NCBI GenBank assembly: GCA_947473045.1
Contig: CANJCO010000026.1
Coordinates: 1-62,928, forward strand
Source of the DNA: Myxococcales bacterium
GTDB taxonomy: Bacteria > Myxococcota_A > Polyangia > Polyangiales > Polyangiaceae
Reading direction: 5' to 3'
Length of the DNA: 62,928 nt
Positions 26,432-55,997 of this stretch are shown piece by piece (position 1 is the stretch's first letter; each line of letters starts with the position of its first letter). Under the pieces are notes generated by a model. The model ran no database searches and was not told the DNA's origin. It saw only the letters and a program-made list of their open reading frames with translations. A program made the translations under genes and the position numbers.

Positions 26432-26794
26432 TCATGACGCGCCCACGACGTCGAACGTGCGCTTGGCGAGGTCGACGACGACCTGGAGTTTCTCGCCGCT
26501 CGCGCGCAGACGCATGCGCACGGAGAGCCTCGTGCGCTTGCCGGCGTCGTCCCAGTCTTCGTCGATATCGATGACCTCGACGCGGGGCTCCCAGAGCCTC
26601 ACATTTTCGCGGATCTCGGCCGTGAGCGCGACGACCATCTCTTCAGGCGTGCGGAAGCCCACGTCGCTGGTGCCAAAGTTGGGGAGGAAGTACCCGGTGC
26701 CCCGCTTCGTTCCGAGAACATTGGAGAGGTTGCGAACAACGTCTTCGAGTTCGGTCGTAGGGTGCCCTCCCAGAAAGTTTTTATACAGAAACAT
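26432..26794 (-). CDS. tssE: T6SS baseplate protein TssE (gp25-like)
   Basis: 120 residues. TssE is a wedge component of the T6SS baseplate that starts sheath assembly. The gp25-like pattern is clear: a region around YFLPNFGTSDVGFRTPEEM, the WEPRVEVIDID core (EPR is the hallmark) and a C-terminal KLQVVVDLAKRTFDV. Its start lies inside the 3' end of tssG (14-nt overlap). Last gene of the tssK-M-J...A-G-E block. Confidence 0.9.
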   Translation of the reverse strand: MFLYKNFLGGHPTTELEDVVRNLSNVLGTKRGTGYFLPNFGTSDVGFRTPEEMVVALTAEIRENVRLWEPRVEVIDIDEDWDDAGKRTRLSVRMRLRASGEKLQVVVDLAKRTFDVVGAS

Positions 26795-27719
26795 CGACCT
26801 TCGAGCCCCTTACGAAATCCGGTTGTGCGCCGGTGATCCCGCGAAACAGCACGACGCTGTGGCCTGCCTCGGCGTCGCCGCGGAGTCTGTCGTAGCCCAA
26901 AAATCCGCTCTCTTCGGTCGACGGCCGATCAAGCCTCGCCCAGCTCTCGTGGCGGAGCACGCGCAAGCGAATCATCAGCGGAATTCGAAATGGCGACAGC
27001 ACGGGCATCAGCCGTTCGTCGAGGCGCTTGCGCGCGACGGCCGCCCACGATCGCCCGCGATCGTCGGTCTCGTCTTCAGCGATGAGCTCGAGCACGAAGC
27101 CCTGCGCGTCCGATTCATAGGCGCGACCAATGACCGAAGTTCCGTCGAGCGCCGATGCGCCCGTGCGAAACGAGTGCGACTCGGTCGCGTTTGAAAACGC
27201 CTGCCGCGTAACGTAGCTCCGGAGGTCGGGAAAGTACGTCTGGCCGAGCCACTGAAGCGTCGCGACGGAGCCGAATCCGCCCATGCGAAGCAGCGAGCGC
27301 TGCACCGCCTGATAGTCGGGATACACCGCGGGGTCGTCCTCGGGAAATACCGCAGCGAGATAGTTGGATATAAGCCGGTGGTCGAAGAAGCGAATGAAGT
27401 CGTAGAACCGGTCCGGATCGTTGCTTTTTTCGACCGCGCTGACGAAGTAGCTTGGAAGCAGGCCGTTGTCGCCCAACAGACCGAGATTGACCGTGATGAG
27501 CACCGTCTGGAGCGGCTTGATACGGAACTCTATCTCATGAACAATCGACGCGGCTCCGCCTTCGTTATTGCCCTGAAACAGTATCGACTCGCGCGGATAC
27601 CCTGCCTGCTCGAGCAGCTTTACGAGCGTACGCAGGTCGAACCTGCGCGCGCTGCGGGATATCTTCTGCTCGAGCGCAGCGCGAGCGGCTGAATCCCGAC
27701 GCGGACGCCCGCCGGCCAT
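26781..27719 (-). CDS. tssG: T6SS baseplate protein TssG
   Basis: About 312 residues. TssG partners TssF in the baseplate wedge. Family features include FDLRTLVKLLEQAGYPRES near the N-terminus and the hallmark LGLLGDNGLLPSYFVS, followed by FYDFIRFFDHRLISNYLAAV. The C-terminal half has the usual beta segments. Start ATG 27719 overlaps the tssA stop (TGATG). In most T6SS loci tssF and tssG are adjacent; here tssF is about 18 kb away. Confidence 0.85.
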   Translation of the reverse strand: MAGGRPRRDSAARAALEQKISRSARRFDLRTLVKLLEQAGYPRESILFQGNNEGGAASIVHEIEFRIKPLQTVLITVNLGLLGDNGLLPSYFVSAVEKSNDPDRFYDFIRFFDHRLISNYLAAVFPEDDPAVYPDYQAVQRSLLRMGGFGSVATLQWLGQTYFPDLRSYVTRQAFSNATESHSFRTGASALDGTSVIGRAYESDAQGFVLELIAEDETDDRGRSWAAVARKRLDERLMPVLSPFRIPLMIRLRVLRHESWARLDRPSTEESGFLGYDRLRGDAEAGHSVVLFRGITGAQPDFVRGSKVDVSV

Positions 27720-28684
27720 CAACCGCCTACGAAGCGGCGGAGGTCGACCCGGTAGAACTGAACCATCGCCTTCCACGCCGTCGAGTCGCGCTGCCCCCAG
27801 AACGAAGAGAGCGCCTCGATGTTGTCGCTGAACTTTTCGCTGAAGTCGGCGAACATGTCGGGGAAATAGGTGCGCGGGTCGAAGTTGTCGACGCTGCGCA
27901 TGATGTCGTCGGCGACGACCGCTGCTTTCACCATCTCTTTTTTGTCGACGAGCTTCTGGAACGCGGCGAGCTTCTGGACCAGCTCGAAATAGGCCGGCGA
28001 GACGCCCACTTCGGCGCGCCCCGAGCGAACGACCATTCGGCCGCCCTCGGTGGCGGCAGCGACCGCCGGAGCGGCCCCCTCGCCGGACGCATGCCCGTCA
28101 CCCGGCTCCGATACGGGGGGATCGTCGACCGGACGCGCGAAGGCCTCGGCGAGCCCGTGAAGGCGCGGCGCGAGCGCGGTGAGCGCCTGCCGCGCCGGAA
28201 GAAACGTCGGTGGCAGCGCTGCGTCGAGGCCGCCGAGCGCCTTGATGGCGGCGTCTATCTGCTCAGGCGACACCCCGCTCGCCCACGCACGCCAATCGGC
28301 AGTTCGCTTGCTTTCGTGATATTGAATGCCGTCTCCGATTTTGAGCGACAACCACGCGAGACGCTTGGCAAAGTGGGTATCGCGCTTGTCGACCGGACCG
28401 AGCGATTCGAGGTTCACCGACACGAGCGCTGTGAGAGTCGTAAATATTTCAGTGAGGGCGGAGACGCCGCTCCTTCGCCATTCGAGCCATAAATAGTAGG
28501 TGATCGCGCGGACGTCGTTCACCCCGGCATCGAACAGAGACTCGACGCGCGTCGCGAGGTCGTCGAACTGCTCCTTGTCGGCCATCGTCGACAGCTCTGC
28601 GAGCGCGGGGTCGACCGAGTCCAGCCCCTTGGCCTCAGCGGTCATCGGTTCGCGAAGAAACGCGAGGTCGCGAAGCTTTTTCAT
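27719..28684 (-). CDS. tssA: T6SS TssA-like protein (ImpA N-terminal family)
   Basis: About 321 residues. TssA proteins organise baseplate and sheath assembly. Segments match ImpA-type proteins: DFAFLREP-like opening (KKLRDLAFLREPMTAEAKGL), DLATRVESLFDAGVNDVRAI followed by TYYLWLEWRRSG, and LALK-type helices. The C-terminal part is a short alternative domain (DPRTYFPDMFADFSEKFSDN) rather than the long form. ATG 28684 overlaps the stop of the PAAR-like gene (ATGA). Confidence 0.8.
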   Translation of the reverse strand: MKKLRDLAFLREPMTAEAKGLDSVDPALAELSTMADKEQFDDLATRVESLFDAGVNDVRAITYYLWLEWRRSGVSALTEIFTTLTALVSVNLESLGPVDKRDTHFAKRLAWLSLKIGDGIQYHESKRTADWRAWASGVSPEQIDAAIKALGGLDAALPPTFLPARQALTALAPRLHGLAEAFARPVDDPPVSEPGDGHASGEGAAPAVAAATEGGRMVVRSGRAEVGVSPAYFELVQKLAAFQKLVDKKEMVKAAVVADDIMRSVDNFDPRTYFPDMFADFSEKFSDNIEALSSFWGQRDSTAWKAMVQFYRVDLRRFVGG

Positions 28685-29067
28685 CCGGCCAGCACCGCGA
28701 ATTGGCCTGGAACGTTGATCTGAATGACCCCGCCCCAGTTGCACATGAGCTTCGAGTCCATTCCGAGCGCGGGCATCTCTCCGATGAGCACAGTGGGCAC
28801 GCCCGGGACCCACGGGGCGACCGTCATCGGAATGCACGGCATCGGGGTCATTACGCCCAGCGCAGCGGCGGTCGCGGCGATGACCATCGGGTTCGCCATG
28901 CTCATGCACATGCCAAACGGCGGCACGTTCACGATGGGCTTGTTATCCATGATATTCGCGACCGGAGTGGGCGCGAGCACCCGATTGAGCGGAAGCACAT
29001 TGAGCGCCGAAGGCGCGGCGCCGAAAGTGCATTGCATCAACGCACCCGTACAAGCCAGCATCGCCAT
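28681..29067 (-). CDS. PAAR-like (DUF4280-type) spike-tip protein
   Basis: 128 residues, rich in Met, Pro and Gly. It resembles the DUF4280/PAAR-like family that caps VgrG spikes: CTGALMQCTFGAAPSALNVL, IMDNKPIVNVPPFGMCMSMA, TPMPCIPMTVAPWVPGVPTV and a C-terminal LMCNWGGVIQINVPGQ. The several Cys could bind metal at the tip. It has an excellent RBS (GGAGG, 6 nt before ATG 29067). It lies between the ANL-like gene and tssA, far from vgrG. Confidence 0.85.
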   Translation of the reverse strand: MAMLACTGALMQCTFGAAPSALNVLPLNRVLAPTPVANIMDNKPIVNVPPFGMCMSMANPMVIAATAAALGVMTPMPCIPMTVAPWVPGVPTVLIGEMPALGMDSKLMCNWGGVIQINVPGQFAVLAG

Positions 29068-29086: not shown

Positions 29087-30802
29087 TTACGTGGTGCGCT
29101 GCGAATCACCAAATATCCAGCCGAGCCTGGCAGTCATTGCAAAGATCGGAGAGCGCGCGCGGGCCGAAAGCGCACCGCTGAGGTATTGGCTCCTGCACCA
29201 CGCGACGTCCACAACGCCGTCGATGAAACGCGGGCGCAGGGCGTAGACGGCGACGCGCGCGGGTACATGGCGATCGCCCATTTCCTGCCGCACACGCGCG
29301 AGAATCTCGGCAGCGGGCGGAGCAGGCGCGGCCTTGTCGCCGCGCGCGTCGGGTTCGACGAACACGAGCAGCACGACGAGCGCGTCGTTCATCCAGCGAC
29401 CCGGAACGACGACCACGGCCGCTGCGCGCACCGCCGGATGCCGCTCGGCGGCTCGCGCAATTTCAGCCCCGGGCACAGTGCGCCCCTCAGGCCCAATCGC
29501 GAGTGAGCCGCCCAGGGTCCAGCCGTGGCCATCGCGCGTGAGCACGACCTCGAGCAGGGAGGCATCGGGCTCCTCGCCCGCGAGCGGCGTGTACGTTCCT
29601 GATTCCCCGAGCGAAGCGAGTGTCCCTGCGCCCACCTGTGAGAGCTGGTAGACGCGCCCGGGAACGGGCCACACGCGCAACCCCGAGGTCGCGAGGCCCC
29701 GGGGCGCGAAGAGGTGCGCGCCGCCCGACGCCGCACTTGTGAGGAGCGCGAAGCCAAAGATGTTGCGGCCCGCGAGCGCTGTGGAGAGCTGCTGCCAGCG
29801 GTCGTAGTCGAGCACGTCGTTCATCGCGCGAAACCAGCTCGCGCCGGGCGGTACCGACTCCCCTCCCTGGCGCAGCAGCAGCTCGCGCAGCGCGCGCGAC
29901 ACGCCAAGCGTGGTGACCCCGGCCTTGATGAGAACCTTCGCATCCGCTTCGAGGTGCCGCGGCTCGAGCTCGACCCACGCGGCCCCGGCAATCCACGCCG
30001 TCAACATCGCGAGCGGCTGCATTTGCAGCGGATCGAAGCCCGGCGCCGCAAGGCGCTCGCCCGGAGCGAGGGTGTAGACGAGCGCAGAATCGCGCAGCAG
30101 CGCTTCATGCAACGCGGCAGCGCTCAGTTCGGACGGATCCGCGTCGTTGGGGCCGAACGCAGAGAGCAGCCGAAGTGGGATGTCGTCGTCGGCGTAGGTA
30201 TGGGATGCGGACAAGCTCGCGTCGCTCGACCCTGGCGTCAAGGCAAGCAGCGGCGAGTCAGGAGCGAGGGTGCGCTCGTGACGCCCCGACGAGACAACGT
30301 GGTCTACGCCGAGGCGCGAGACGCGCGATCGAACATAGGTGGGCCCGAGCGGCGGAAGCACCGAAATGGTAAGTCCCATTCGAAGCGCAGTCACCATCGC
30401 GACAGCGAGCTCGATGCCGACAGGCAACACGATGGCTACCGATTCGCCCGCCTTGACTCCCGCCGCGCGCCACGCGTTGGCCAGGGCGCTCGACCGCTCA
30501 TGCAGCGAGTCGAACGAGAGCGAGAGCAAGTCCCGGTCATCGTGCACCAGCAGCGCCGCGCGCTTCTTGCCAACATTGGCGAGCACGCAATCATGATAAA
30601 AGTCGAATCCCGTTCCCGGTCGCCCCTTTATCGCGCCTCCGCGCTGCTCAGCGACGCTGCCATAGAGCCCCTTCTGAAAGCGCGCGGGGTCGTTCCAGGT
30701 CGAAGGAAGCCAGCCCGACAGCCACGCTTCGGTCGCCCGGCCTGCGCGAAGTACCTCGCGAACGGCCTGAAAATCGATGCGACGAGGCTCAAGCAGCGTC
30801 AC
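29087..30802 (-). CDS. adenylation-enzyme (ANL)-like protein lacking catalytic motifs
   Basis: 571 residues with the architecture of AMP-binding enzymes (acyl-CoA synthetases, NRPS A domains). The N-terminal half matches well (ERSSALANAWRAAGVKAGES, VAIVLPVGIELAVAMVTALR), and the C-terminal domain aligns through VPGAEIARAAERHPAVRAAA. Two signature sites are gone. The phosphate loop (normally YTSGSTGxPKG) reads VYTLAPGERLAAPG, and the catalytic C-terminal Lys (TGK motif) is Val in FIDGVVDVAW. It is therefore probably a pseudoenzyme. GTG start. It sits between tssJ and the PAAR-like gene, in the middle of the T6SS operon; its role there is unknown. Confidence 0.8.
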   Translation of the reverse strand: MTLLEPRRIDFQAVREVLRAGRATEAWLSGWLPSTWNDPARFQKGLYGSVAEQRGGAIKGRPGTGFDFYHDCVLANVGKKRAALLVHDDRDLLSLSFDSLHERSSALANAWRAAGVKAGESVAIVLPVGIELAVAMVTALRMGLTISVLPPLGPTYVRSRVSRLGVDHVVSSGRHERTLAPDSPLLALTPGSSDASLSASHTYADDDIPLRLLSAFGPNDADPSELSAAALHEALLRDSALVYTLAPGERLAAPGFDPLQMQPLAMLTAWIAGAAWVELEPRHLEADAKVLIKAGVTTLGVSRALRELLLRQGGESVPPGASWFRAMNDVLDYDRWQQLSTALAGRNIFGFALLTSAASGGAHLFAPRGLATSGLRVWPVPGRVYQLSQVGAGTLASLGESGTYTPLAGEEPDASLLEVVLTRDGHGWTLGGSLAIGPEGRTVPGAEIARAAERHPAVRAAAVVVVPGRWMNDALVVLLVFVEPDARGDKAAPAPPAAEILARVRQEMGDRHVPARVAVYALRPRFIDGVVDVAWCRSQYLSGALSARARSPIFAMTARLGWIFGDSQRTT

Positions 30803-30811
30803 GCGACGGCC

Positions 30812-31225
30812 CTAGCGCTTTCGAACCTGCACGCGGTCAACTTGATTGGCGCCGAGGTCGATATAAACCTCGGACGGAAGCGGCTTGGGCAGCGGGACCC
30901 GCCAGTTGCTCTGCGGATGCGAGAAGAAGAAGTAGAGGACGACCTGCTTGGCATCGGCATCGCTCAGCACGATGTCGACCGTGTTGCCGGGGAAGATCGG
31001 CTGACTCGACAGGACCGACGGATCGGGAGGGTCTGCGAACAGCTTCGCCGCCATATCCTGATACTGCTCGTTTACGCTCGTCTTTCCCTCGACGTTACGC
31101 GCCATCATGTAGAGCGTATTTCCGTCGTTCGTCAGCTGGGTCGACTTCACATAAACGTGAGTCGTCGTGGCACAGCCCATAGACAGCGCGGCGAGTCCGA
31201 CGCCGCACGCGACTTTGGCGATCAT
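30812..31225 (-). CDS. tssJ: T6SS outer-membrane lipoprotein TssJ
   Basis: 137 residues. A lipoprotein signal (GVGLAALSMGC) anchors it in the outer membrane, where TssJ tethers the periplasmic end of TssM. The rest is a small beta-rich domain (VVLYFFFSHPQSNW, PLPSEVYIDLGANQVDRV) matching the family in length. Its start overlaps the tssM stop (ATGA). Confidence 0.88.
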   Translation of the reverse strand: MIAKVACGVGLAALSMGCATTTHVYVKSTQLTNDGNTLYMMARNVEGKTSVNEQYQDMAAKLFADPPDPSVLSSQPIFPGNTVDIVLSDADAKQVVLYFFFSHPQSNWRVPLPKPLPSEVYIDLGANQVDRVQVRKR

Positions 31226-34200
31226 CGCACTCCCCCGCTGTCGCCCGAGCCGCGCACGAGCCGGGCGAGCCCGAGAAACGGTCCCATGGGGTCGCCGTAC
31301 GCCGCGAAGCGGGCTCGGGCGCCGCTCTTGTCGCCGCCCGGAACCCAGCTGTAGATCACAGTGCCCGCCTCGGCTCGCGAGGGCGCGGCCTCGGAGGCCT
31401 TGGTGAACAACCGAAAGAGGCTGAAGTAGCCGGGATCGATCGATATCGGCGTCGGGAACTTGTTGTCCTTCGTGTCGAGATCCGTGAGTTGAAGCCCGAC
31501 CTGACTGGCCACTTCTTTCGTCCAGTCGAGGTGCAGCGTCGTCACGCTGGCTTTCTGGTTGAAGTTGAAGACGGATGCGTCGCCAACCGTAAGATACGCG
31601 AGGGTGAGCGCTGCGCTCGGATTCGAGCCGTGATCGAACGGAACGGTGCCGACCCGAACATCGAGCGCCTTGCTCAGACCGGTCGAGTCGAACAGGCTCG
31701 ACGAGACTGCAGCGACCGAATTGACCACAGCAAACATACGGGGCGGATAGACAATCCTGCCGCGCAACGCGGGCAACTCGCGGAACGACTTTCCGTCGCC
31801 AAAGTCAGATACGGGCTCGAGCAGCCGGCGGAAGGCGTCGAAGAACACGCCCTTTTGCGGGTCGAAGAAAGCAATCAGATCTTTGGACCGGACCTCTTCC
31901 TTCGACGCCAGGTCGAACGGAAACTTCGTCACGATCGGCGCGAGACCGCTCATGATTTCGCGCTCCCATGAGCGGGCGACTTCCCGCTCGATTTCACGGA
32001 GCCCGATCGCCGTGAGCTGCTCAACAGGCAGCACGAATGGCCGCTGGAAGGAGTCGCGAAGCGCAACGCCTGCGACCCAAACGCGGACCATCGAGGGATA
32101 CGATCCCTTCTCTCCGCGGACGGCCTTCAGCGTCAGGACGCCTGCCGGGGAAAGTCCCGTCTCGAGCGTCGGCTTGCCTGCCGCGGCTGCCGGAGCGTCG
32201 GCGGCCGGCGCGGCGGCGGCTGCGGGCGCCCCGTCGACGGGCGGCCCGAGGTCGGTGAGGAGCTGCTTGAGGATCTCCTTGTATTTCGCGATCTCCGGCG
32301 CTCCGCCAGTGGCGTCGAGCACTTTATGAAGATTGGAAAATTCGGCTAGCGCCTCGTCCATCGGCGCAAGCCAGGGGTGCGTGTTCTGAATGCCAACTTG
32401 CTTGTCGACGGTCGTCAGAAAGTCGTTGAACGCCGACGTGTCGGCCACCATTTGTCCCAGCACCACGCGCAGCTCCTGGGGCGACGAGGCCCTCAAGCCA
32501 AAGCTCTGGTAGAAGCGCGAAACCTGAGCCTTGTATTCCGCTGCGTACGAGGCGACCTGATCTTTGATGAGCTCGGCGAGGGCGCGCTTGAGGTCATCGG
32601 GCACAGGCGACTTGTCGAGAGTCTCGCTGAGCTTCGTGATGGTCCCGAGAACGTAGGTGTCGAACGCCGCGCGGGTGTAGCGCGCCTCGATCTCGGATTT
32701 TCCGAGGAACATCGAAGTGCCGTCGTTGCCGGGGTTCCAGGCTACGGGCCGGAGCTGAGCGTCGGCCTGCGCTCCGAAGAAGACGGAAGTCGGCGCGAGG
32801 CGGGGACGCACGTAGCGCGCGACCTGCTCGGTGGCCTTGCTCGCGCGGATCAGGTCGGCCCACTTGTGCGTCTCGAACGAGAACTCCTGCGCGCCAAACT
32901 TGACCTTCACCGTGCGGTCGGCCGACGTATCGAGGCTCTCCTGCTGCAGCGACGAGAGGCGGTCGCCGAGCGCCGACAGCAGCTCCACATCGGGCGAGAC
33001 GAGCGTCGACGCGCGAATGATGCGGAGGATCGACTTGAGATCCTCCCGCGCCGCGTAAACGTCAGAGGTGACTCCGTCGTTGAGCAGACCTTCGTAGCGT
33101 GGCTCGTAGGCGATCCTGAGCTGCGCGCGGCCCGCGTTCGGGTTCTTCGGCGTCGTGAAATTCGCGGCCGCGTCGAGGTCGCCCAGAATGGCGAGGGTTC
33201 GCTCATCGTGTTCGAATCGCGCGAACGTTCCAAAGAGTTCAGCGGCCCGCGCCTGCAGGCGCTGCAGGTCGTCGGCCTTTACGATTCGGCCGTCGACGGT
33301 CGTTCCGACGTCGCGCAGGAAGGACGTCCACAGCGTGACTCCGTCGCGCCCGTCGAGCGCTGGATTCGGAAGTTCGAAGGAGACCGGAGTTCGGTAGGAA
33401 GCGTCGGTCGTTTTCAGGTAGTCGCTAATGAGATCCGGCGGCAAATCGGTCATTTGCGCCCACACGTTGAGGCTGCGCGTGTCGAGGATGTGCATCCCGT
33501 CGTTGTGATCGCCGTGAATGAGCGCGAGGAAGTAGAGCGACCGCCGCCACGCCGTGCCCGCCGCATCGGCCGATCCCGCTGCCGACGCAGAGACCTGCCG
33601 AAGACGTGGGACGAGAAGCTGATCGCGCAGCTCGCGAGACAACCGCGCGCGCACGGCCTCTCTGCGGGCATCGAAGAAGTCGGGGTACGACAGGGCGCCG
33701 TGCCGTCCCGCTCCAAAGGCCCGGATCACAACCCGCCTCGAGCGCTCTCCCTCGGTCCCGCGCTCTCTCGGATCGTAGTCGTGAAAGGCTTCGAGCGCCG
33801 CGCGGCACGCGCTCCGCTGCTCGACAAATGCCAGCACCAAAAAGAGCGATGCGGCAGCGGCGATGGCGCCGACGAACAACTTGTGGCGCGCGCGCGGATC
33901 GGGGCCCGGCCCTGTTTCTGCCGCGTTGCGCAGCGGACTGGGGAGCGCGACCGCGTCTCCAGCGAGGAATACTCCGCCGCACGCGGGAGCGATCGACAGC
34001 GCCTCCCTCGCGAACAAAGCATCGACGAACCTGCCGACCGAGGGCGCGATCGCGCCCGATCCGCGGACGAACTCGACCGCCTTCCGAAACTGGGAGGTAG
34101 GAAGCGTGACGAGCGCTCGGGCCAGGTGTCCGCGATTGGACGCGAGCCACGCGTCGACCTGAGCTTCGGCGGCCAGCTTGCTCGCGCCCTGCTCCACGGC

Positions 34201-34944
34201 GATGCGGAGCGAGATGCCCTCCTCGCGGCACAGGGCCGCGAAGTCGACGAAGCCGGGCAGCTCGTCGAGGTGGGTCAGTACGACGCGAACCTCGATCGCC
34301 CGGCCGCGTATGCGACTGATGACGTTGATTTTGCCGCGAATGCGCTCAGCGAGATCGGTCACCTCTTCGGGGGTTGCCTCGCGGAGGCGAACGGCGTCGA
34401 CGGCCACGAGGACCGTGGGGGAGCGGCCCTTGTAAAGCGGACGCCACAGGCGCTCGAGCGCCTTTTGGCAGCCCTCGCTGTAGTCGGAGAGTACCCGCCC
34501 CGGGAGCTCGGTGATAACGGCCCACGACCCGAGGTATACTTGCAAATCATCGTCGAACGACTGACTGCCCACGAACTGCTTGGCCTGCCGGCGCCAGTCC
34601 GAATAGTCGTCGATGACGCGGCTCTTGCCGCTGCCTGGGGCGCCAATGACGACGTAATGCTCAAAATTGAGGATGGATCGCCGGTAGACGCGCGGGAGCG
34701 ACGACAGGAAGCGAAGCCACGCGCGCCGAAGCTGCGCGGGTCCAATCGCGCCCGACCGGCCCGACGGCTCGCCTGGCGCCGACACGGCCGGCGGCTCGGC
34801 TTTGCTCTTTTTTCGCGCCACCCACCATGCGACGGCGAGCCCGCCAACGATGACCAGCACGGGGAGCAAGAAGCCCAAAACCGTCGCGACTCCCGGCGGA
34901 ATGCCGAGCTTGGTGACGAATTCAAGCGCTTTCTTTGGGTCCAT
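31222..34944 (-). CDS. tssM: T6SS membrane complex protein TssM (IcmF)
   Basis: 1240 residues, normal for the family. An N-terminal helix (TVLGFLLPVLVIVGGLAVAW) and a second helix near residue 355 (FVGAIAAAASLFLVLAF) flank a cytoplasmic NTPase-like domain with an intact Walker A at 101-108 (GAPGSGKS). The large C-terminal part is periplasmic and contains an Ala/Pro-rich insert (PAAAAAPAADAPAAAAG). TssM spans the envelope with TssL and TssJ to anchor the machine. The adjacent order tssK-tssM-tssJ fits; tssL lies in the other block. Confidence 0.95.
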   Translation of the reverse strand: MDPKKALEFVTKLGIPPGVATVLGFLLPVLVIVGGLAVAWWVARKKSKAEPPAVSAPGEPSGRSGAIGPAQLRRAWLRFLSSLPRVYRRSILNFEHYVVIGAPGSGKSRVIDDYSDWRRQAKQFVGSQSFDDDLQVYLGSWAVITELPGRVLSDYSEGCQKALERLWRPLYKGRSPTVLVAVDAVRLREATPEEVTDLAERIRGKINVISRIRGRAIEVRVVLTHLDELPGFVDFAALCREEGISLRIAVEQGASKLAAEAQVDAWLASNRGHLARALVTLPTSQFRKAVEFVRGSGAIAPSVGRFVDALFAREALSIAPACGGVFLAGDAVALPSPLRNAAETGPGPDPRARHKLFVGAIAAAASLFLVLAFVEQRSACRAALEAFHDYDPRERGTEGERSRRVVIRAFGAGRHGALSYPDFFDARREAVRARLSRELRDQLLVPRLRQVSASAAGSADAAGTAWRRSLYFLALIHGDHNDGMHILDTRSLNVWAQMTDLPPDLISDYLKTTDASYRTPVSFELPNPALDGRDGVTLWTSFLRDVGTTVDGRIVKADDLQRLQARAAELFGTFARFEHDERTLAILGDLDAAANFTTPKNPNAGRAQLRIAYEPRYEGLLNDGVTSDVYAAREDLKSILRIIRASTLVSPDVELLSALGDRLSSLQQESLDTSADRTVKVKFGAQEFSFETHKWADLIRASKATEQVARYVRPRLAPTSVFFGAQADAQLRPVAWNPGNDGTSMFLGKSEIEARYTRAAFDTYVLGTITKLSETLDKSPVPDDLKRALAELIKDQVASYAAEYKAQVSRFYQSFGLRASSPQELRVVLGQMVADTSAFNDFLTTVDKQVGIQNTHPWLAPMDEALAEFSNLHKVLDATGGAPEIAKYKEILKQLLTDLGPPVDGAPAAAAAPAADAPAAAAGKPTLETGLSPAGVLTLKAVRGEKGSYPSMVRVWVAGVALRDSFQRPFVLPVEQLTAIGLREIEREVARSWEREIMSGLAPIVTKFPFDLASKEEVRSKDLIAFFDPQKGVFFDAFRRLLEPVSDFGDGKSFRELPALRGRIVYPPRMFAVVNSVAAVSSSLFDSTGLSKALDVRVGTVPFDHGSNPSAALTLAYLTVGDASVFNFNQKASVTTLHLDWTKEVASQVGLQLTDLDTKDNKFPTPISIDPGYFSLFRLFTKASEAAPSRAEAGTVIYSWVPGGDKSGARARFAAYGDPMGPFLGLARLVRGSGDSGGVR

Positions 34945-35062: not shown

Positions 35063-36313
35063 TTAGGCGTCGCGCCAATAAAGGTAGAGGCGGCAATCCT
35101 TGAGCGCGGGAGAGTCGAACAGCACGACCTTGCCCTCCGCAACGGCGTAGTCCCACTCCTGCCCGGGGGTCACCGAGAAGAAGTCCACGGTCGAGGCGAG
35201 ACCGTGGTGAAACGGGGGACTCTCAAGCTTATTAAACGAGATGCCGCGCAACGCTCGCTCGTGAACGAGGTTGATTCGGCCCTCGCTCGCCAGCTTGACC
35301 CTCGCGAGGTCGAGCTTGATGGCGACCTGCGGCTTCTGCACGAGAAGAAACACGTCCTTGGCCCGCCGCACCTCTTTGCCGAGCGCGCAGGTCAGCACGC
35401 CGTCGCGAAGCTGAAATTCCGAGTACGGCAGGCGCTGGCGCCCGATGTGAACCTGCTCTTCGAGCTCCGAGAGCAGCGTATCGAGTGAGCTCGCGAGCTC
35501 TTCGTGCTCGTAGCCGCGATCGAGGCCCGCAGGGTGCACGTTTCGGAAAACGCAAACATCGAGATAAAGCGCGCGGACAGCGCAAAACACGTCGTAGGGA
35601 TGAGGGCGAATCTCCCGCCCGATGTCTCCCAGGAAAGCCGTAAACGCAAAGAGTCCGCGGAGGCACTGCTTGGCCGCCGCCTGCCCCTCGGCGGCGAGGT
35701 AGTTCTCCTTGACCTCGTCGAGGAGCACCTGCTGCAGCGCCGTCGCGATCGCCGCGCCCCGCGCGATGAGCGGCTTGAAGAATGGTTCGTCGCCGACCCG
35801 AACCATGGCGGGCAAAAAGTTGGGGTCGAGCGCCCACACGCCGTTGGGCGCGCACTCGAGGCGGGCGAGCTTGAAGGACTCCGCGCCGGTCGCGCTGTAC
35901 GGCTCTACCGAGAGCTCAATCTTTTGAATGACGCGCTCGACGCCGTCGTCGCCGGGAGCACCCTGCGAGACGTTTGCAGTCTCGTATCCGCTCTGCAGGT
36001 GCAGATACACCGTTACGCTGGTCGCACCGGTAGCGTTCAGATTGAGGAACGCAGGAGACGTATTGCCCGGCACATCCACGAGCGCGCCCGAGCGGAGCAA
36101 CAATGTGAGCTCCTGCACCGTGACCACGCCTTTTTGAAGCTGAAAGTCGTCCCACGTGAGCGACGCCACACCGAACGCCGGCGCGCTCCCGAGCCGAAGG
36201 CGAAGTCCGAACTCCTCCCGGAGGGACTGCTCCTGCGCGTAAAAGTGCTCCGGCAGCAGGGCCTGGCCCATGTGCCAATGCACCCGCGAAGTCTGATGGG
36301 CAACCTTCTTCAT
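35063..36313 (-). CDS. tssK: T6SS baseplate-membrane connector TssK
   Basis: About 416 residues. TssK trimers join the baseplate to the TssJLM complex. The N-terminal hallmark is present (VHWHMGQALLPEHFYAQEQS), as are HPYDVFCAVRALYLDVCVF-type and GRQRLPYSEFQLRDG segments and a C-terminal head ending CRLYLYW. ATG 36313 starts exactly at the conserved N-terminus. The gene begins 196 bp after tube2, behind a terminator, so it probably has its own promoter, which I could not identify. Confidence 0.93.
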   Translation of the reverse strand: MKKVAHQTSRVHWHMGQALLPEHFYAQEQSLREEFGLRLRLGSAPAFGVASLTWDDFQLQKGVVTVQELTLLLRSGALVDVPGNTSPAFLNLNATGATSVTVYLHLQSGYETANVSQGAPGDDGVERVIQKIELSVEPYSATGAESFKLARLECAPNGVWALDPNFLPAMVRVGDEPFFKPLIARGAAIATALQQVLLDEVKENYLAAEGQAAAKQCLRGLFAFTAFLGDIGREIRPHPYDVFCAVRALYLDVCVFRNVHPAGLDRGYEHEELASSLDTLLSELEEQVHIGRQRLPYSEFQLRDGVLTCALGKEVRRAKDVFLLVQKPQVAIKLDLARVKLASEGRINLVHERALRGISFNKLESPPFHHGLASTVDFFSVTPGQEWDYAVAEGKVVLFDSPALKDCRLYLYWRDA

Positions 36314-36454
36314 GGCGCGGACTCTACCAATGAAACGGAAAATGGGAGGGAGTAGTGCGGGCGCCGCACCACGCCACAGACGCGCGAAGCGGCGGCTCCG
36401 CGAGGAGAGTCGCGTCGCGTGCGCAGAGCGACAGGCGACAACCAGGATCGCGCG

Positions 36455-36495
36455 AAAACAAAACGGGCGAGGGCAGCTCGCGCCACCCCCGCCCG
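36455..36495 (-). terminator. intrinsic terminator ending the tube1-tssB-tssC-tube2 operon
   Basis: On the minus strand, 15 bp after the tube2 stop, CGGGCGGGGG pairs with CCCTCGCCCG (one G-U pair) across a 12-nt loop, followed by TTTTGTTTT. This separates the sheath/tube operon from tssK. Confidence 0.85.
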
Positions 36496-36509
36496 CAAAG
36501 AGCCAGAAA

Positions 36510-37181
36510 TCAGGCCGGGATCGCGGTGAGCGGCTGCGTGCCGACCTTGAGACCCCAGGCGTTGACGAACTTCTTCTCGGCGTCCATCGCCCCACCGATC
36601 GTGTACGTCGAGTTCGCCGCGGGGACGACCTCGAAGGACACGCGGTAGACGTTCACGTCGACGTTCGCGGCGACCTTCGTCGGCTCGGCAGCGACGTGAA
36701 GGCGGATATCCGCGCCGCCCGGAGCGTTGAGCTGGCCGGTGACGTGGGTGGGCTCCTTCGGGTAGCTCTCCTCGAACCACTTCTTGTTCACTTCGTCGAA
36801 GTTCGTGATCCACCAAGCGAGCTTGGTGATGGACGTCGACTTCAGCGTCGTCTGAAGTTTGGTCTGAATCTGCTGCGCGTTCTCAGACGACAGATAAGCC
36901 GAGAAGACGAGCGGATCGCCAACGCCGCCCGACCAGCTGAACGACTCGATGACACCAACGCAGGTGATCTTGTTGGGCGTCATCGACGCGTCGATAACAA
37001 GGTTCGCCGTGTCGGTGTAGTCGGCGGGAGCCGCGTTGAAGGGCATGAAAACCTGGATATCGGCCGCGAGCGTCGCGTCGAGTCCCATGCCGTTGAGCGC
37101 CAGCAAGTAGCCGCAGCGCTGCTTCTTCTGCGGGTCCATAACGAACCCGGCTCTCCAGTCGCAATCAAAGGGATTAGGCAT
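36510..37181 (-). CDS. T6SS tube-like protein 2, paralogue of the protein at 39487-40104
   Basis: 223 residues, no signal peptide. It does not show canonical Hcp motifs but is clearly homologous to the other tube-like protein: CDWRAGFVMDPQKKQRCGYL here versus CDWRFGFNVDPKKKAAVGYL, then DIQV.xPF, GVIESFSWSGGVGDP, YLSSENAQQIQTKL and a terminal VNVYRVSFEVVPA. Lying immediately after tssC, where hcp/tssD usually is, and being small and beta-rich, it is inferred to be a tail-tube (Hcp-role) protein. The leader GAGATTATagATG resembles that of tssC (GAGATTATctATG). Confidence 0.6.
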   Translation of the reverse strand: MPNPFDCDWRAGFVMDPQKKQRCGYLLALNGMGLDATLAADIQVFMPFNAAPADYTDTANLVIDASMTPNKITCVGVIESFSWSGGVGDPLVFSAYLSSENAQQIQTKLQTTLKSTSITKLAWWITNFDEVNKKWFEESYPKEPTHVTGQLNAPGGADIRLHVAAEPTKVAANVDVNVYRVSFEVVPAANSTYTIGGAMDAEKKFVNAWGLKVGTQPLTAIPA

Positions 37182-37219: not shown

Positions 37220-38704
37220 TCAACCGAGACGGGCGTCGACCCGAAGATCGACGTCCATGCCTTCGAACTGAATGTGCGGCAGGACCGACAAGTTGCAGTG
37301 GTACCAACCGATTTTGCCGGGCACTTCGGCCACGTCGAGGCTGTAGGCCTTGAAGGGGAAATAGCGGAGCGTGAGGTCGTCGGGGTTGACGACGGTGGTG
37401 ACGAAACGCGACATCCAGCTGCCGATCTGGGCCTGCACGTAGGCCGCGTTGGCGGAGCTGCCGATGTTGTCTCGCATGATGCACTTGAGGTAGTGCGCGA
37501 TGCGCGTGATCGAGAAGGTGTACGAGAGGTTCGTCACCAGCTGGGAGTTCTCGGAATCTTTCGGATCCTTGAACTTGTGGGCCTTCTTGAGCGACTGCAC
37601 GCTGAAGAACACGGCGTCCGCCGAGTTCTTTTTGTGGATGATCGGGATGAGGCCGGTGTTCGCGAGCTCGAGCTCGCGGAAGTCGGGCATCGACACCTCG
37701 ATCGGCGCGCGGAGCTCGTCTTCGCCGCGAAGATTGTAGCTGTACGACGGCAGGCCGGAGATGAGACCGCCGCCCTTGACGCCGCGGAGGTACTGACACC
37801 AACCGGAGCTCTCGAACGACTTGGCCAGGTTGCGGGCGAGGAGCATGGAGCCGCTGCCCCAGAGGTACTCGCTCGACTTCTCGCCGTGGATCGACTCGGT
37901 GAAGTTGATGCGCTCGGCCGGGTTGGTCGTGTCGTTCCAGGGGATTCGCGCGAGGTAGCGCGGAGCGACGAGGCCGAGATACGCGGCTTCTTCGCTGTCA
38001 CGGAGCTGATTCCAGCCCGAGTACGCGGGGGTGTCGACCATGCCGGCGATGTCGCGCAGCGAGTTCATCTCGGCGAACGTCTCGCAGCCGAAGAACTTCG
38101 GCGCGACGTTTCCGATGAACGGCGCGTGAGCCGCGGTGGCGATCTTGCCAATGGTGCGAAGGAAGAGAATGTCCTTCGGGGTATTGGCGAAGTCGTAGAG
38201 GCCAATCATCGCCCCGTAGGGCTTTCCGCCGAACTGATCGTACTCGGAGACGTAGACCTTCTTGAAGAGCTCGGAGCCGGCGATGTCCTGCGCGGTCAGC
38301 TCGAGGTCGTCGAACAGCTCATCCTTCGTCACGTCGAGGAGGCTGATGTCGATGTTCGCGCGGAAGTTCACGTTGCGGACGAGATCGGCGATCGAAGTCC
38401 ACGCAGATTCCACGGCCTGGAATTCCGGCGCGTGGAGAATTTCGTTCAGCTGGGCTTCGACGATTTTGTCGATGCCGGCGACGAGGACCTGGATCGACTG
38501 CTTGTCGAAGCGGTCTTCACCCTTGGGCATGTTGTAGACAACGGCCGCGAGGCTCGAAACGAAGCGGTCTTCGGGCGTGACGTCTTCGACGAGCTTCTCG
38601 AGGTTGCCCTGAAGCATGGGCGTGGGCTTGCCCATGTCGGGGCTCAACTTCACGCTCGAAAGGAAGCTCTTGATACTCAGCGTATCGGTAGTGGTTTCAG
38701 ACAT
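37220..38704 (-). CDS. tssC: T6SS contractile sheath large subunit TssC (VipB)
   Basis: 494 residues. TssC and TssB form the contractile sheath. Clear family regions: IDKIVEAQLNEILHAPEFQA, ESAWTSIADLVRNVNFRANI, YGAMIGLYDFANTPKDILFL, VAPKFFGCETF, and near the end HYLKCIMRDNIGSSANAAYV. It starts 32 bp after tssB, with AGGAG 12 nt upstream of the ATG. Confidence 0.97.
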   Translation of the reverse strand: MSETTTDTLSIKSFLSSVKLSPDMGKPTPMLQGNLEKLVEDVTPEDRFVSSLAAVVYNMPKGEDRFDKQSIQVLVAGIDKIVEAQLNEILHAPEFQAVESAWTSIADLVRNVNFRANIDISLLDVTKDELFDDLELTAQDIAGSELFKKVYVSEYDQFGGKPYGAMIGLYDFANTPKDILFLRTIGKIATAAHAPFIGNVAPKFFGCETFAEMNSLRDIAGMVDTPAYSGWNQLRDSEEAAYLGLVAPRYLARIPWNDTTNPAERINFTESIHGEKSSEYLWGSGSMLLARNLAKSFESSGWCQYLRGVKGGGLISGLPSYSYNLRGEDELRAPIEVSMPDFRELELANTGLIPIIHKKNSADAVFFSVQSLKKAHKFKDPKDSENSQLVTNLSYTFSITRIAHYLKCIMRDNIGSSANAAYVQAQIGSWMSRFVTTVVNPDDLTLRYFPFKAYSLDVAEVPGKIGWYHCNLSVLPHIQFEGMDVDLRVDARLG

Positions 38705-38736: not shown

Positions 38737-39279
38737 TCAGCTCGCCTGGGTCGCGTCGGCAGGCTTGTCGCCCGCGGGGACCTTGAAGTCGTCGAAGCCC
38801 TCGAGCTCCTTGACGATGGACTCGACCGCGTCTTTGTCGGCGGCGAGCAAGCGCATCAGGCGGCGGAACTCCTTGCGGTTGTCGAGGTTCGCTTGAACTT
38901 CGAGGAGGAGCTTGCGCAGCACGAGCAGCGACTTGATCTTCGGGACCGAATTGGCGACTTCGGCGGGCGTGAACGAACGCATCGAGGAAATCGGAATCGT
39001 CGCCGAGAGGGACTCGGACTTTTCGGGATCGACGCGGTTCGGAACGTTGACCGAGACCGACATTTTCATGTCGCTGATCACGTCGTCGAGGTTCTTGCCG
39101 TCGAGCCGGCGCAGATTGCGCGCGTCAAGGTCGACCTGGCGGTCTCGGGAAGTGCCGCCCGAGAGATCGCCCATCACAACAAGGCGAAACGGGAGTTGGA
39201 CCTCTTCGGCCTCACCGCTGACGGTTGTGCGGTAGGTAAGCGTCAGTCGTGACTTCGGGATTTCGTCGTTAATGGCCAT
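38737..39279 (-). CDS. tssB: T6SS contractile sheath small subunit TssB (VipA)
   Basis: 180 residues. Typical segments: EVQLPFRLVVMGDLSGGTSR, ARNLRRLDGKNLDDVISDMK, VPKIKSLLVLRKLLLEVQAN. ATG 39279 has GGAG 6 nt upstream. It follows tube1 after a 206-bp spacer that contains a repeat-loaded hairpin. Confidence 0.96.
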   Translation of the reverse strand: MAINDEIPKSRLTLTYRTTVSGEAEEVQLPFRLVVMGDLSGGTSRDRQVDLDARNLRRLDGKNLDDVISDMKMSVSVNVPNRVDPEKSESLSATIPISSMRSFTPAEVANSVPKIKSLLVLRKLLLEVQANLDNRKEFRRLMRLLAADKDAVESIVKELEGFDDFKVPAGDKPADATQAS

Positions 39280-39417
39280 TGTTACTCCGTTGACTGTGGC
39301 ACGCAGGAGATGCGCGAACGATCTGCACCGCGCAGGATCGCGCATCGGAAGTGAAAAGGATAGGAATTAGAGCGAAGGTTTGGCGCTTCGCTAAGCGGCG
39401 CTTGCGCGCGCTACACG

Positions 39418-39486: not shown

Positions 39487-40104
39487 CTAGCTCGCAGCCT
39501 TGGCCCACTGGCGCACGACGCGGGTTGTGGGGCCGGTTGCGAATTCGAGGTTCGCAGTGGCACCATCGGCCGGGACGATCTGGAACTCGGCCCGATAAAG
39601 GTGAATGTCGAGCTGGGGCGAGAGCGCGACAGGCTCGTTCGAAACGAAGAGTTGCAGGTCACCGTTCATCGTGTCGAGCACGGCGTTGACGCTGCCCGAC
39701 GCGTCTTTGATCAGCGCGGCCTCGTACCAAGTCTTCTTTTCGCCGTCGAAGTCGATGATGTACCAACCAACCTTGAGCTTGGTGGTCGTGAGCGGCGAGG
39801 CCAGCTTGGCGCGAAGATTGGCCGCTGCGCCTTTGCTCAGGTACGTCGAGATGCGGATCGGATCATCGGAGCCGCCCTGATACGAGAACTTGTCGATCAT
39901 CCCGATGCACTCGACGGTGGCGCCGCTGACGATCGTTTGGCCGCTCGACGAGAACGGATTCCACACCTGGATGTCCTGGGGGAGCGTTAGACCGCCGCAG
40001 CCGCTCCAGAAGAGCAGGTAGCCAACGGCGGCCTTTTTCTTGGGGTCGACGTTGAAGCCGAAGCGCCAATCGCACTGGTAATCGAGGTTGTTGGTCGGGG
40101 GCAT
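39487..40104 (-). CDS. T6SS tube-like protein 1, paralogue of the protein at 36510-37181
   Basis: 205 residues, no signal peptide. It aligns along its whole length with tube-like protein 2: CDWRFGFNVDPKKKAAVGYL, LPQDIQVWNPF, IGMIDKFSYQGGSDDP, GWYIIDFDGEKKTWYEAALI, DIHLYRAEFQIVPADG. Canonical Hcp motifs are absent. It is the first gene of the operon that also encodes both sheath subunits. By location and fold type it is a tail-tube or tube-initiator candidate. The two paralogues could form a mixed tube, or one could be a baseplate-proximal or terminal ring. Confidence 0.6.
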   Translation of the reverse strand: MPPTNNLDYQCDWRFGFNVDPKKKAAVGYLLFWSGCGGLTLPQDIQVWNPFSSSGQTIVSGATVECIGMIDKFSYQGGSDDPIRISTYLSKGAAANLRAKLASPLTTTKLKVGWYIIDFDGEKKTWYEAALIKDASGSVNAVLDTMNGDLQLFVSNEPVALSPQLDIHLYRAEFQIVPADGATANLEFATGPTTRVVRQWAKAAS

Positions 40105-40556: not shown

Positions 40557-43109
<2,553 letters not shown>

Positions 43110-43155
43110 GAACTCTCCATGGAGACGTGGTTGGGTAGCGTGACGGGCGCGCGGC

Positions 43156-43881
43156 TCAATGCCGCGGCGCCGGAGGCGGTGCGGGAGCCGGCGGGGGCGC
43201 AGCGGACGTCGGCGGCGCGCTCGGAGGCGCCGGGACGGACGCAAGGGGCGGCGCGATTGGGGCCGGAGCGGCCGGCGGCGGGGCCCCTTCCGACAACCGC
43301 CACCCGGGCGGCTGCTGCTTCACCTTCTCGCTCGCGAACGACTCATCAAGCACGTAGTCGAGATGCGCCGAGCGACCGGCGACGATGCGATATTTCTGGC
43401 CCGCCCAGGTGAAGAGAAAGCCCTTCGCCCACCGCGCAGCAAAAGGCTCGGGCTCGCCGGGCGCGTTCTCCATGGCGGCGATCAGGAATCGGCGCGCCTC
43501 GGGCGGAGGGGGCGGATCGCCGTCGTGCGCTTCGGCAAACCACAGCGTTCGCCCGGCCTCGCCCCGCGAGAAGCTGACCAACAAGAAACCGTCGCGGACG
43601 TCGATCGCGACGCCGGGCGTGTGCGCGGGGATGACGATCTGCTCGATGCGAACGCCATCCTGAATGACGAGCGCCGCGCCCTGCGTAGCCTTCGCGCGAA
43701 CCGCGAGCTCGCGCTGCAGCACGATTTCTTCGGACGTGAAAAACTGGATGCGGCCGACGTCGCCAGCGCTGAGATTGTAGCGATCGCGCACCGCCTGGGT
43801 GAACGCGGTGTTCGCGCAGCCTGCAGTGAGCAGGACGAATACAGCCAGGGTTGCTCTCAGGGACCGGACGACGTTGCTCAA
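43156..43881 (-). CDS. unknown T6SS-associated lipoprotein
   Basis: 241 residues. A lipoprotein signal (LAVFVLLTAGC) is followed by a beta-rich domain of ~180 residues (VGRIQFFTSEEIVLQRELAV, DGVRIEQIVIPAHTPGVAID, TWAGQKYRIVAG) and an Ala/Pro-rich tail of about 45 residues. No family recognised. It overlaps the lytic transglycosylase gene by an ATGA, which suggests a joint role in the envelope. Confidence 0.75.
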   Translation of the reverse strand: MSNVVRSLRATLAVFVLLTAGCANTAFTQAVRDRYNLSAGDVGRIQFFTSEEIVLQRELAVRAKATQGAALVIQDGVRIEQIVIPAHTPGVAIDVRDGFLLVSFSRGEAGRTLWFAEAHDGDPPPPPEARRFLIAAMENAPGEPEPFAARWAKGFLFTWAGQKYRIVAGRSAHLDYVLDESFASEKVKQQPPGWRLSEGAPPPAAPAPIAPPLASVPAPPSAPPTSAAPPPAPAPPPAPRH

Positions 43882-44965: not shown

Positions 44966-45745
44966 CTAGACATCGGCCACGAGCCCGGCGAACCACGCGA
45001 GCGCGAGCCACACGCCCGCGACCGCTGCGACTGCGATCACGTAGGCCTTCCAGGGAAACGGCACGAGCTGCACCGCGTGGGGCTCGCGCTGGAGCAGCTC
45101 CGCGTGGTCGGTCTGGCGGAGCGGAATGCGCTCGCGCAGACGCGTCTTGTAGTCTTCGAGCTTGGGGCGATCGGCGGCGTACATGCCGAGGAATCCGTCA
45201 CTCAGGCAGAAGTAAAAGACCTCGAAGACAACAGGCGGGGTTTCTTCTTTGCGCAGGCGCTCGTCGAGGATCGAATAAAAGAGCTCGCCGCCATTGTCGA
45301 TGTCGTAGAGCTCGCCCTGGAGCGACTCCCAGCGCGAGGTTTGCCCTGGCATCACCGTCGCGACCAGCTCGTCCGTGTAGACTACAATCGGAAACAGCGC
45401 GTAGTAGACTTCGTGCTCACTGAGCGCTTCGCCGAGCTTCGATTTGAGCCACCCGAAGCGCTTGCGAAGGCGCGCACGAAGCTCGACGAGATCGGGGCCG
45501 TCGGGGTGTGCTTCGAGGAACTCGAGGTCGCGCGAGAGCTCGGCGGCCTTGGCTTGCCGCGGATCGCCAGCGTCGAGGTCGTCGTCTTCGGGAAGCTTCC
45601 GCCCGCCCATCATGGCCCGGAGCATGGCGCCCTCCGCCTGCTTGCGCTGGAGCGCGAGGCCGGCTGCGCGCGCCTCGATACAAAGCGTCTCGATTTCGGC
45701 AAAAGCCGACTCGATCGAAAACCAAAGTGCGGTGGAGGATGCCAT
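44966..45745 (-). CDS. tssL: T6SS membrane protein TssL (DotU)
   Basis: 259 residues. The cytoplasmic domain has the family pattern: YYALFPIVVYTDELVATVMP, WESLQGELYDIDNGGELFYS, VFEVFYFCLSDGFLGMYAAD and RPKLEDYKTRLRERI. A single C-terminal helix (AYVIAVAAVAGVWLALAWFA) anchors it. It joins TssM and TssJ in the envelope complex. There is no C-terminal peptidoglycan-binding extension, which may explain the separate cell-wall gene downstream. Confidence 0.93.
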   Translation of the reverse strand: MASSTALWFSIESAFAEIETLCIEARAAGLALQRKQAEGAMLRAMMGGRKLPEDDDLDAGDPRQAKAAELSRDLEFLEAHPDGPDLVELRARLRKRFGWLKSKLGEALSEHEVYYALFPIVVYTDELVATVMPGQTSRWESLQGELYDIDNGGELFYSILDERLRKEETPPVVFEVFYFCLSDGFLGMYAADRPKLEDYKTRLRERIPLRQTDHAELLQREPHAVQLVPFPWKAYVIAVAAVAGVWLALAWFAGLVADV

Positions 45746-47428: not shown

Positions 47429-48091
47429 TCAGCCGAGCTTGATGAGCTGCGCGCTCACGCTCACGAGCGACCCCTTGATGGTGGTGATGTCCTGACCGAC
47501 CGTCGTCATCGGCGCGGCCATCTCGGCCTGGGCCGTGCCTGCGATGCCGACCTTGAGGCCGCTCACTGCGACCTCGGTCGTGCCGCTGAGCGTTGCCTTC
47601 TGCAGGGCGCTCACGGTGGTGTTCTGCCCCGACAGGCTCGCGTCCATAGTCGCGCTGAGTGACAGCTTCTGCGTCGCCGACAGCGACATGTCCTGAACGC
47701 TCGACGCCGTGAATTTCTGCGTGGCCGAGATCGTCGTGCTCTGCGTGCTCGTCAGCTTGATGTTTTGCGTCGCGGCCACCACGGTATCCATCGTCGAGTT
47801 GAGCTTGATGGAGTCGGCGTCGACTTGAAACGTTCCGCAGGCGATCTTCACCGTGTCAGCCTGCTGCGTGATGGTGCTGCTCGCCGCGGGGCCGGCCACC
47901 TTCGTGATGAGACTGTCGACCGCCTGCGTGACGGTCGTCGTGTTGATCGCGTTCTTCACCGTGAGCACGATCGTCGTCCCGTTCATCACCATCGTCTGCG
48001 TGACGAGGCCGAGCGTGTCCTTGACGGTGAGCGTAAGGCCGTCGGCCTTGCTCATTTCGATGGAACAGTTGAGGATCGTGGTCGTCGCCAT
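47429..48091 (-). CDS. repetitive beta protein, probable separate spike needle
   Basis: 220 residues, no signal peptide, mostly Thr, Ser, Ala, Val and Gln in short repeats of about eight residues (for example TQNIKLTSTQSTTISATQKF and LSATQKLSLSATMDASLSGQ). This alternating pattern is like the C-terminal beta-prism (gp5 needle) of VgrG proteins. It follows vgrG, whose own C-terminus is helical instead. I infer that the needle part of the spike is encoded as its own trimeric protein. No catalytic motif is seen. Confidence 0.65.
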   Translation of the reverse strand: MATTTILNCSIEMSKADGLTLTVKDTLGLVTQTMVMNGTTIVLTVKNAINTTTVTQAVDSLITKVAGPAASSTITQQADTVKIACGTFQVDADSIKLNSTMDTVVAATQNIKLTSTQSTTISATQKFTASSVQDMSLSATQKLSLSATMDASLSGQNTTVSALQKATLSGTTEVAVSGLKVGIAGTAQAEMAAPMTTVGQDITTIKGSLVSVSAQLIKLG

Positions 48092-55987: not shown

Positions 55988-55997
55988 GGAGGTTACT

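What the first reader, a model, noticed from the sequence alone, without database searches (positions are those of the whole stretch)
29087..30802. Adenylation-enzyme pseudoenzyme inside a T6SS operon
An ANL-fold protein between tssJ and the PAAR-like gene has lost both the P-loop (VYTLAPGERLAAPG) and the catalytic Lys (Val in FIDGVVDVAW). Keeping a full-length but non-catalytic fold in this operon suggests a structural, adaptor or ligand-sensing role not described for the core T6SS.
Basis: partly seen in the sequence, partly recalled or inferred. Interest (0 to 1): 0.75.

Follow-up and report, generated by a model that had tools for sequence, protein, structure and literature searches.

The report
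Dead enzyme as secretion-machine part
A protein with the shape of acetyl-CoA synthetase, but with its catalytic motifs destroyed, is carried by every sampled genome that holds this Francisella-like injection machine and by none without it, so a metabolic fold seems to have become a fixed part of a bacterial weapon.

Summary
P0001 (30802-29087, minus strand, 571 aa) is a full-length ANL (acyl-CoA synthetase) fold (pLDDT 89; best solved match Z 32) without ATP P-loop or catalytic Lys. Motifs A3, A5, A7 and A8 are degraded in all 20 family members read; the A10 Lys is not conserved.

The operon is not canonical T6SS. IglE, IglG (DUF4280), IglI, a PdpA-like protein, a short VgrG-like protein and an IglB-closest sheath mark it as Francisella-type (T6SSii-like). 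Of 379 genomes of the phylum, 17 carry the pseudo-ANL; the same 17 carry IglI, with matching copy numbers, while 51 other TssC-bearing genomes lack it. dN/dS is 0.14-0.29. The gene sits beside IglG and IglI, in the slot of Francisella iglF, which is needed for efficient initiation of sheath assembly.

Most likely it is a non-catalytic assembly factor, the IglF counterpart, acting with the TssA-like IglI and the PAAR-like tip. Homology to IglF was not tested (referred). Ligand sensing and cargo roles are not excluded.

The parts
29087..30802 (-). pseudo-ANL protein (571 aa), acyl-CoA-synthetase fold without catalytic motifs
   Evidence: Pfam; fold; motif table; family and tree
30812..31225 (-). 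IglE-like (TssJ-equivalent) lipoprotein
   Evidence: PF22361 IglE_N E 4.8e-18, NF041245 E 3.6e-6 (below cut-off)
28681..29067 (-). PAAR-like tip protein, DUF4280/IglG family, without the N-terminal extension of Francisella IglG
   Evidence: PF14107 E 6.6e-33; NF041248 IglG E 1.1e-14, below cut-off, match begins at model position 57
27719..28684 (-). IglI-family protein, TssA-like (ImpA_N) N-terminal part
   Evidence: NF041244 215 bits, cut-off 100; profile match to T6SS protein 6rju E 1.4e-4; fold match to TssA ImpA_N 6hs5 prob 1.00, E 0.02
26781..27719 (-). TssG (IglJ position)
   Evidence: PF06996 E 1.8e-4, TIGR03347 E 2.2e-4, both below cut-off; conserved next to IglI
26432..26794 (-). TssE
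   Evidence: PF04965 E 2.9e-10, TIGR03357 below cut-off
31222..34944 (-). TssM/IcmF
   Evidence: PF14331 1.6e-10; TIGR03348 1e-19, below cut-off
35063..36595 (-). TssK
   Evidence: TIGR03353 E 2e-82, above cut-off
36510..37181 (-). conserved tube-like (Hcp candidate) paralogue 2; identity inferred from position
   Evidence: homologous to 39487-40104 and next to TssB/TssC in many loci; no Pfam, NCBIfam or PDB match
37220..38704 (-). TssC sheath, closest solved relative is Francisella IglB
   Evidence: TIGR03355 488 bits; IglB 413 bits against 343 for the next TssC
38737..39345 (-). TssB sheath
   Evidence: TIGR03358 E 2.1e-39
39487..40104 (-). conserved tube-like (Hcp candidate) paralogue 1; identity inferred from position
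   Evidence: no family match
40557..43244 (-). ClpB-like AAA+ unfoldase
   Evidence: TIGR03346 ClpB 1104 bits against TssH/ClpV 765, both below cut-off
44966..45745 (-). DotU/TssL
   Evidence: PF09850 E 1.3e-21
45764..47407 (-). TssF (IglH-like)
   Evidence: PF05947 E 3.7e-26; NF041246 IglH/TssF E 4.7e-12, below cut-off
47429..48091 (-). short VgrG-like spike protein
   Evidence: DUF2345 E 0.0018, below cut-off; conserved in T6SS loci
48185..52240 (-). PdpA-like spike-hub protein with long helical C-terminus
   Evidence: only solved match of the family profile is PdpA (6u9e, E 2.6e-4)

Best explanation
An acyl-CoA synthetase fold that lost catalysis before the family spread became an obligate, non-enzymatic part of a Francisella-like (T6SSii-like) secretion machine in this phylum. 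Shown: fold, loss of motifs, one clade, purifying selection, 1:1 occurrence with IglI-type machines, position between IglE and IglG/IglI. Inferred: it is the functional counterpart of Francisella IglF and helps to start assembly by bridging the PAAR-like/VgrG-like spike or the membrane complex to the TssA-like IglI and the baseplate; the conserved segment at the old A10 site (DxxWCxxQYxSGxL) and the C-terminal helix would be a binding face in place of a catalytic loop.
For: 20 of 20 family members read (window included) lack the Gly-rich P-loop, the A5 Glu, the A7 Asp and the A8 motif, and the A10 Lys is not conserved. They form one clade with 100/100 support against 13 motif-bearing ANLs. 17 of 379 genomes carry the family and the same 17 carry IglI, with copy numbers 2:2, 3:3 and 2:2 in multi-copy genomes; TssC is found in 68 genomes, so 51 TssC-bearing genomes lack it. 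A congener (G349, 89% complete) lacks this gene, IglI and TssC alike. ANL-(PAAR)-IglI order in all 18 T6SS loci where both can be read. dN/dS 0.14-0.29, in the range of TssC and TssG. iglF lies directly before iglG and its product binds IglG (PMC5014421); deletion of iglF or iglG nearly abolishes sheath assembly (PMC5481754); IglF is 67.9 kDa (PMC5924787).
Against: No direct comparison with IglF was made (referred). IglG binds IglF through an N-terminal extension that the window's PAAR-like protein lacks. In seven readable loci no PAAR-like gene was found beside the ANL, so the tip link is less constant than the IglI link. One genome (G057) has the ANL on a stretch where no other T6SS gene was found. 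No interaction, secretion or phenotype was measured.
Confidence: 0.6

Rival explanations
1. It is cargo or a cargo adaptor: a protein that rides on the PAAR-like tip, or loads effectors, and is injected with it. This is how Rigard et al. read IglF.
For: Gene next to the DUF4280 tip gene in 10 loci, with the tip gene between ANL and IglI; IglF called a putative effector and found secreted.
Against: 1:1 with the machine across six families, with no variable effector-like replacement; constraint like that of structural genes; iglF needed for assembly itself; PAAR-like gene not found adjacent in seven loci.
Confidence: 0.17
2. It is a ligand sensor: the old nucleotide/acyl/CoA cleft still binds a metabolite and gates assembly or firing.
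For: The whole two-domain fold with its C-terminal domain is kept; a Ser survives at the first P-loop Thr position in 19 of 20.
Against: The ATP-binding signatures A3, A5, A7 and A8 are all degraded. No coordinates were available to look at the pocket.
Confidence: 0.12
3. It is an enzyme with altered chemistry, still transferring AMP or acyl groups with other residues, as some 'pseudokinases' do.
For: Fold and domain arrangement kept; two of three close relatives in one genus have a GK near the A10 position (L070, L072).
Against: The third (L071) has GQ; P-loop Gly and Lys, A5 Glu, A7 Asp and A8 Asp are absent throughout.
Confidence: 0.07
4. It is a passenger: a decaying metabolic gene caught in the operon.
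For: Catalytic motifs are lost.
Against: Open in all 20 copies (one cut by a contig end), one old clade, low dN/dS, perfect co-occurrence.
Confidence: 0.02

Closest known systems
Francisella IglF (T6SSii)
   Same: Gene directly before the IglG/DUF4280 gene and upstream of IglI; similar size (67.9 kDa against 571 aa); published role in efficient initiation of sheath assembly (PMC5481754).
   Different: Sequence and fold not compared here (referred). IglG's IglF-binding N-terminal extension is missing in the window's PAAR-like protein; in Francisella vgrG lies between iglE and iglF (order partly from my knowledge).
AMP-forming acetyl-CoA synthetase (ANL superfamily)
   Same: Complete N- and C-domain fold; best profile matches are acetyl-CoA synthetases, E 1.6e-24.
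   Different: A3, A5, A7 and A8 motifs lost and no conserved A10 Lys; T6SS-linked; about 14% identity to Acs.
TssA of canonical T6SS
   Same: Neighbour IglI carries a TssA-like ImpA_N region.
   Different: That is the neighbour, not the ANL protein; the ANL itself resembles no T6SS protein known to me.

Membership tests
ANL superfamily (fold) | AMP-binding N-domain plus C-terminal lid domain | tested here: met
   (20 of 20 members match AMP-binding at E <= 0.1)
ANL superfamily (active enzymes) | A3 P-loop [ST]SG[ST]TGxPK | tested here: not met
   LSAFGPNDADP in the window; 0 of 20 family members have it
ANL superfamily (active enzymes) | A10 catalytic Lys | tested here: not met
   Val in the window; GK only in L070 and L072 with a one-residue shift, GQ in their sister L071
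ANL superfamily (active enzymes) | A5 TE, A7 GD, A8 GRxDD motifs | tested here: not met
T6SSii (Francisella type) | IglE, IglG, IglI and PdpA-type components | tested here: met
   of the Igl models only IglI passes its NCBIfam cut-off; DUF4280 and IglE_N pass Pfam cut-offs; the PdpA match is weak (E 2.6e-4)
T6SSii (Francisella type) | sheath closer to IglB than to canonical TssC | tested here: met
   413 against 343 bits among solved chains only; no sheath tree was made
T6SSii (Francisella type) | no unfoldase gene in the cluster (general ClpB used) | tested here: not met
   A ClpB-like gene lies within the cluster; the FPI lacks a ClpV homologue
IglF | gene directly upstream of the IglG-type gene in an IglE...IglI string | tested here: met
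   FPI neighbours
IglF | sequence or fold homology to IglF | not tested
   comparison referred
IglF | binds the N-terminal extension of its PAAR-like partner | tested here: inconclusive
   the window's partner has no such extension; binding itself cannot be tested here

The most novel reading that the evidence does not exclude
IglF-type proteins are degenerate acyl-CoA synthetases: the T6SSii class, thought to be confined to Francisella, has wider relatives in this phylum and uses a captured metabolic fold as an obligate assembly-initiation part beside a TssA-like protein.
Probability: 0.45. Interest if true: 0.82.

Novelty: new variant of a known kind. Interest (0 to 1): 0.72.

Why it matters
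The Francisella T6SS has several essential parts of unknown origin (IglF, IglI, IglJ; PMC5481754, PMC5924787). Related machines in another phylum make them readable: IglI looks TssA-like, whereas a 2018 review says no Francisella TssA is known, and the iglF slot is filled by a recognisable dead acyl-CoA synthetase. It would be a clear case of a metabolic enzyme fold recruited as an obligate part of a contractile injection machine, in organisms where it can be studied away from a dangerous pathogen.

Tried and rejected
Guessing NF041247 to be an IglF model: it is UsfY, irrelevant. The search for related loci in genome contigs with the single protein gave only a Lysobacter sequence matching about 81 residues, an ordinary ANL relative; the alignment was too diverse for viral contigs; no plasmid match. 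A sample of 398 genomes of another phylum gave no match at E 1e-25, which shows little without a positive control. Distance correlations between gene families: ANL-TssM 0.70, ANL-IglI 0.58, ANL-PAAR 0.19; small numbers, so not used as proof. Some first-pass reference ORFs were wrong-frame; the clean motif table is. The coordinates used for IglI and TssG were off and were corrected. No paper held discusses an ANL protein in a T6SS under the terms tried. The canonical T6SS reading was rejected on the neighbours' families.

Full report
What was checked. The ORF at 30802-29087 on the minus strand is open and encodes 571 aa. Pfam finds AMP-binding at 2.8e-10 over residues 90-162 only, and the C-terminal domain weakly. 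A profile of 20 family members reaches acetyl-CoA synthetases at 1.6e-24 over both domains. The AlphaFold model made with that alignment has pLDDT 89.2 and pTM 0.90; Foldseek's top matches are acetyl-CoA synthetases at about 1e-25, and the second aligner gives Z 32.1, rmsd 2.8 over 383 residues to 5u2a, with many ANL enzymes tied near Z 30. It is therefore a full ANL fold.

Motifs. Aligned with six motif-bearing Acs-like enzymes from the same group of genomes, the P-loop YTSGSTGKPKG corresponds to LSAFGPNDADP in the window, A5 QTETG to SAASG, A7 YFTGD to WTLGG, A8 GRxDD to a gap, and A10 SGK to DGV (P-loop and A10 also). None of the 20 family members has a P-loop; one is cut by a contig end before A10. 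Two close sequences of one genus (L070, L072) have a GK near A10 and their sister L071 has GQ, so the Lys is not conserved.

Family. Against 13 motif-bearing ANLs the 20 sequences are one side of a branch with 100/100 support; some branches are long. dN/dS for close pairs is 0.14-0.29, similar to TssC and TssG of the same loci. The gene is therefore kept by selection, as a protein without the known ANL chemistry.

Surroundings. The operon holds TssB, TssC, TssE, TssF, TssG, TssK, TssM, DotU and a ClpB-like unfoldase, but the diagnostic neighbours are Francisella-type: IglE_N (4.8e-18), DUF4280/IglG (6.6e-33; IglG model 1.1e-14, below its cut-off), IglI (215 bits, cut-off 100), an IglH/TssF match (4.7e-12, below cut-off), a large protein whose only solved relative is PdpA (2.6e-4), a short VgrG-like protein, and a TssC whose best solved match is IglB (413 against 343 bits). 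It is called T6SSii-like here and not T6SSii, because several of these matches are weak, no phylogeny with Francisella was made, and a ClpB-like gene lies in the cluster. IglI itself looks TssA-like: profile match to 6rju (1.4e-4), and the model's best fold match is the ImpA_N domain of TssA (6hs5, prob 1.00, E 0.02, TM 0.33-0.40). The fold match is modest; the two lines support each other.

Distribution. In 379 genomes of the phylum the ANL profile matches 17 at E <= 1e-20; the weakest of these genomes has 6.5e-76, so ordinary ANLs do not intrude. IglI is present in the same 17 (sixteen over the cut-off, one split over two contigs), and two more genomes have weak sub-cut-off matches of 54-57 bits. 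Multi-copy genomes match: G260 2:2, G321 3:3, G351 2:2. TssC is in 68 genomes including all 17, so 51 genomes with TssC lack the ANL. The 17 fall in 12 genera and six families, and relatedness means they are not independent events. One genome outside it (L025, titled Lysobacter) holds only ordinary ANLs. A congener of the window (G349, 89% complete) lacks TssC, IglI and the ANL.

Order. In 18 loci (the window included) the ANL is followed by IglI, directly or with the PAAR-like gene between them. The PAAR-like gene lies between in ten, on the other side in one (L076), and was not found beside it in seven. In L068 the contig ends inside the ANL gene; in G057 the ANL lies on a contig stretch where no other T6SS gene was found, while IglI, TssG and TssE lie on another contig. 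IglI is thus the constant partner, the PAAR-like gene a frequent one.

How it probably works. Francisella iglF lies between vgrG and iglG; IglF binds IglG and has been called a putative effector (PMC5014421). Its size is 67.9 kDa (PMC5924787). In F. novicida, deletion of iglF or iglG leaves about one sheath per 400-500 cells in 5 minutes, and iglI and iglJ are essential, so the authors list all four as putative structural parts (PMC5481754). The string IglE-ANL-IglG-IglI-TssG in the window matches iglE-iglF-iglG-iglI-iglJ once vgrG, iglH and dotU are left aside (the full FPI order is from my knowledge; IglJ as TssG counterpart is from PMC9600919). The best explanation is that the pseudo-ANL fills the IglF role: a non-enzymatic assembly factor at the base or tip, working with the TssA-like IglI. 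Position, size and obligate occurrence are shown; homology to IglF, binding partners and mechanism are inferred. Fetching the Francisella protein for comparison was left out because it is described as a possible injected effector of a listed germ.

Rivals. Cargo or cargo adaptor (0.17), metabolite sensor (0.12), enzyme with altered chemistry (0.07) and passenger (0.02) are set out in the fields above. The sensor idea is not excluded, because the fold is kept whole and nobody has tested binding.

Verdict. Novelty: a new component type in a known kind of machine. The search for prior reports covered only open-licence papers, so an earlier description elsewhere cannot be excluded.

Noticed in passing
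27719-28684 (-): IglI-family protein looks TssA-like by profile and fold, while a 2018 review says no Francisella TssA has been identified.
   Followed up: partly
48185-52240 (-): 1351-aa protein whose family profile matches PdpA; it has a long helical C-terminus (apolipoprotein-like Pfam match) found in no other member of the alignment.
   Followed up: partly
36510-37181 and 39487-40104 (-): Two paralogous Hcp-like candidates flank tssC/tssB; no family or solved-structure match.
   Followed up: partly
52356-54326 (-): Glucose-6-phosphate dehydrogenase with a C-terminal cyclic-nucleotide-binding domain.
   Followed up: no
43878-44597 (-): Lytic transglycosylase (SLT) gene inside the T6SS cluster.
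   Followed up: no
L067, L073, L082, L083: IglI orthologues carry long Asp/Ser/Glu-rich linkers between their two conserved parts.
   Followed up: no
54608-57016 (+): Exopolysaccharide genes (EpsZ- and EpsY-like) next to the T6SS cluster.
   Followed up: no
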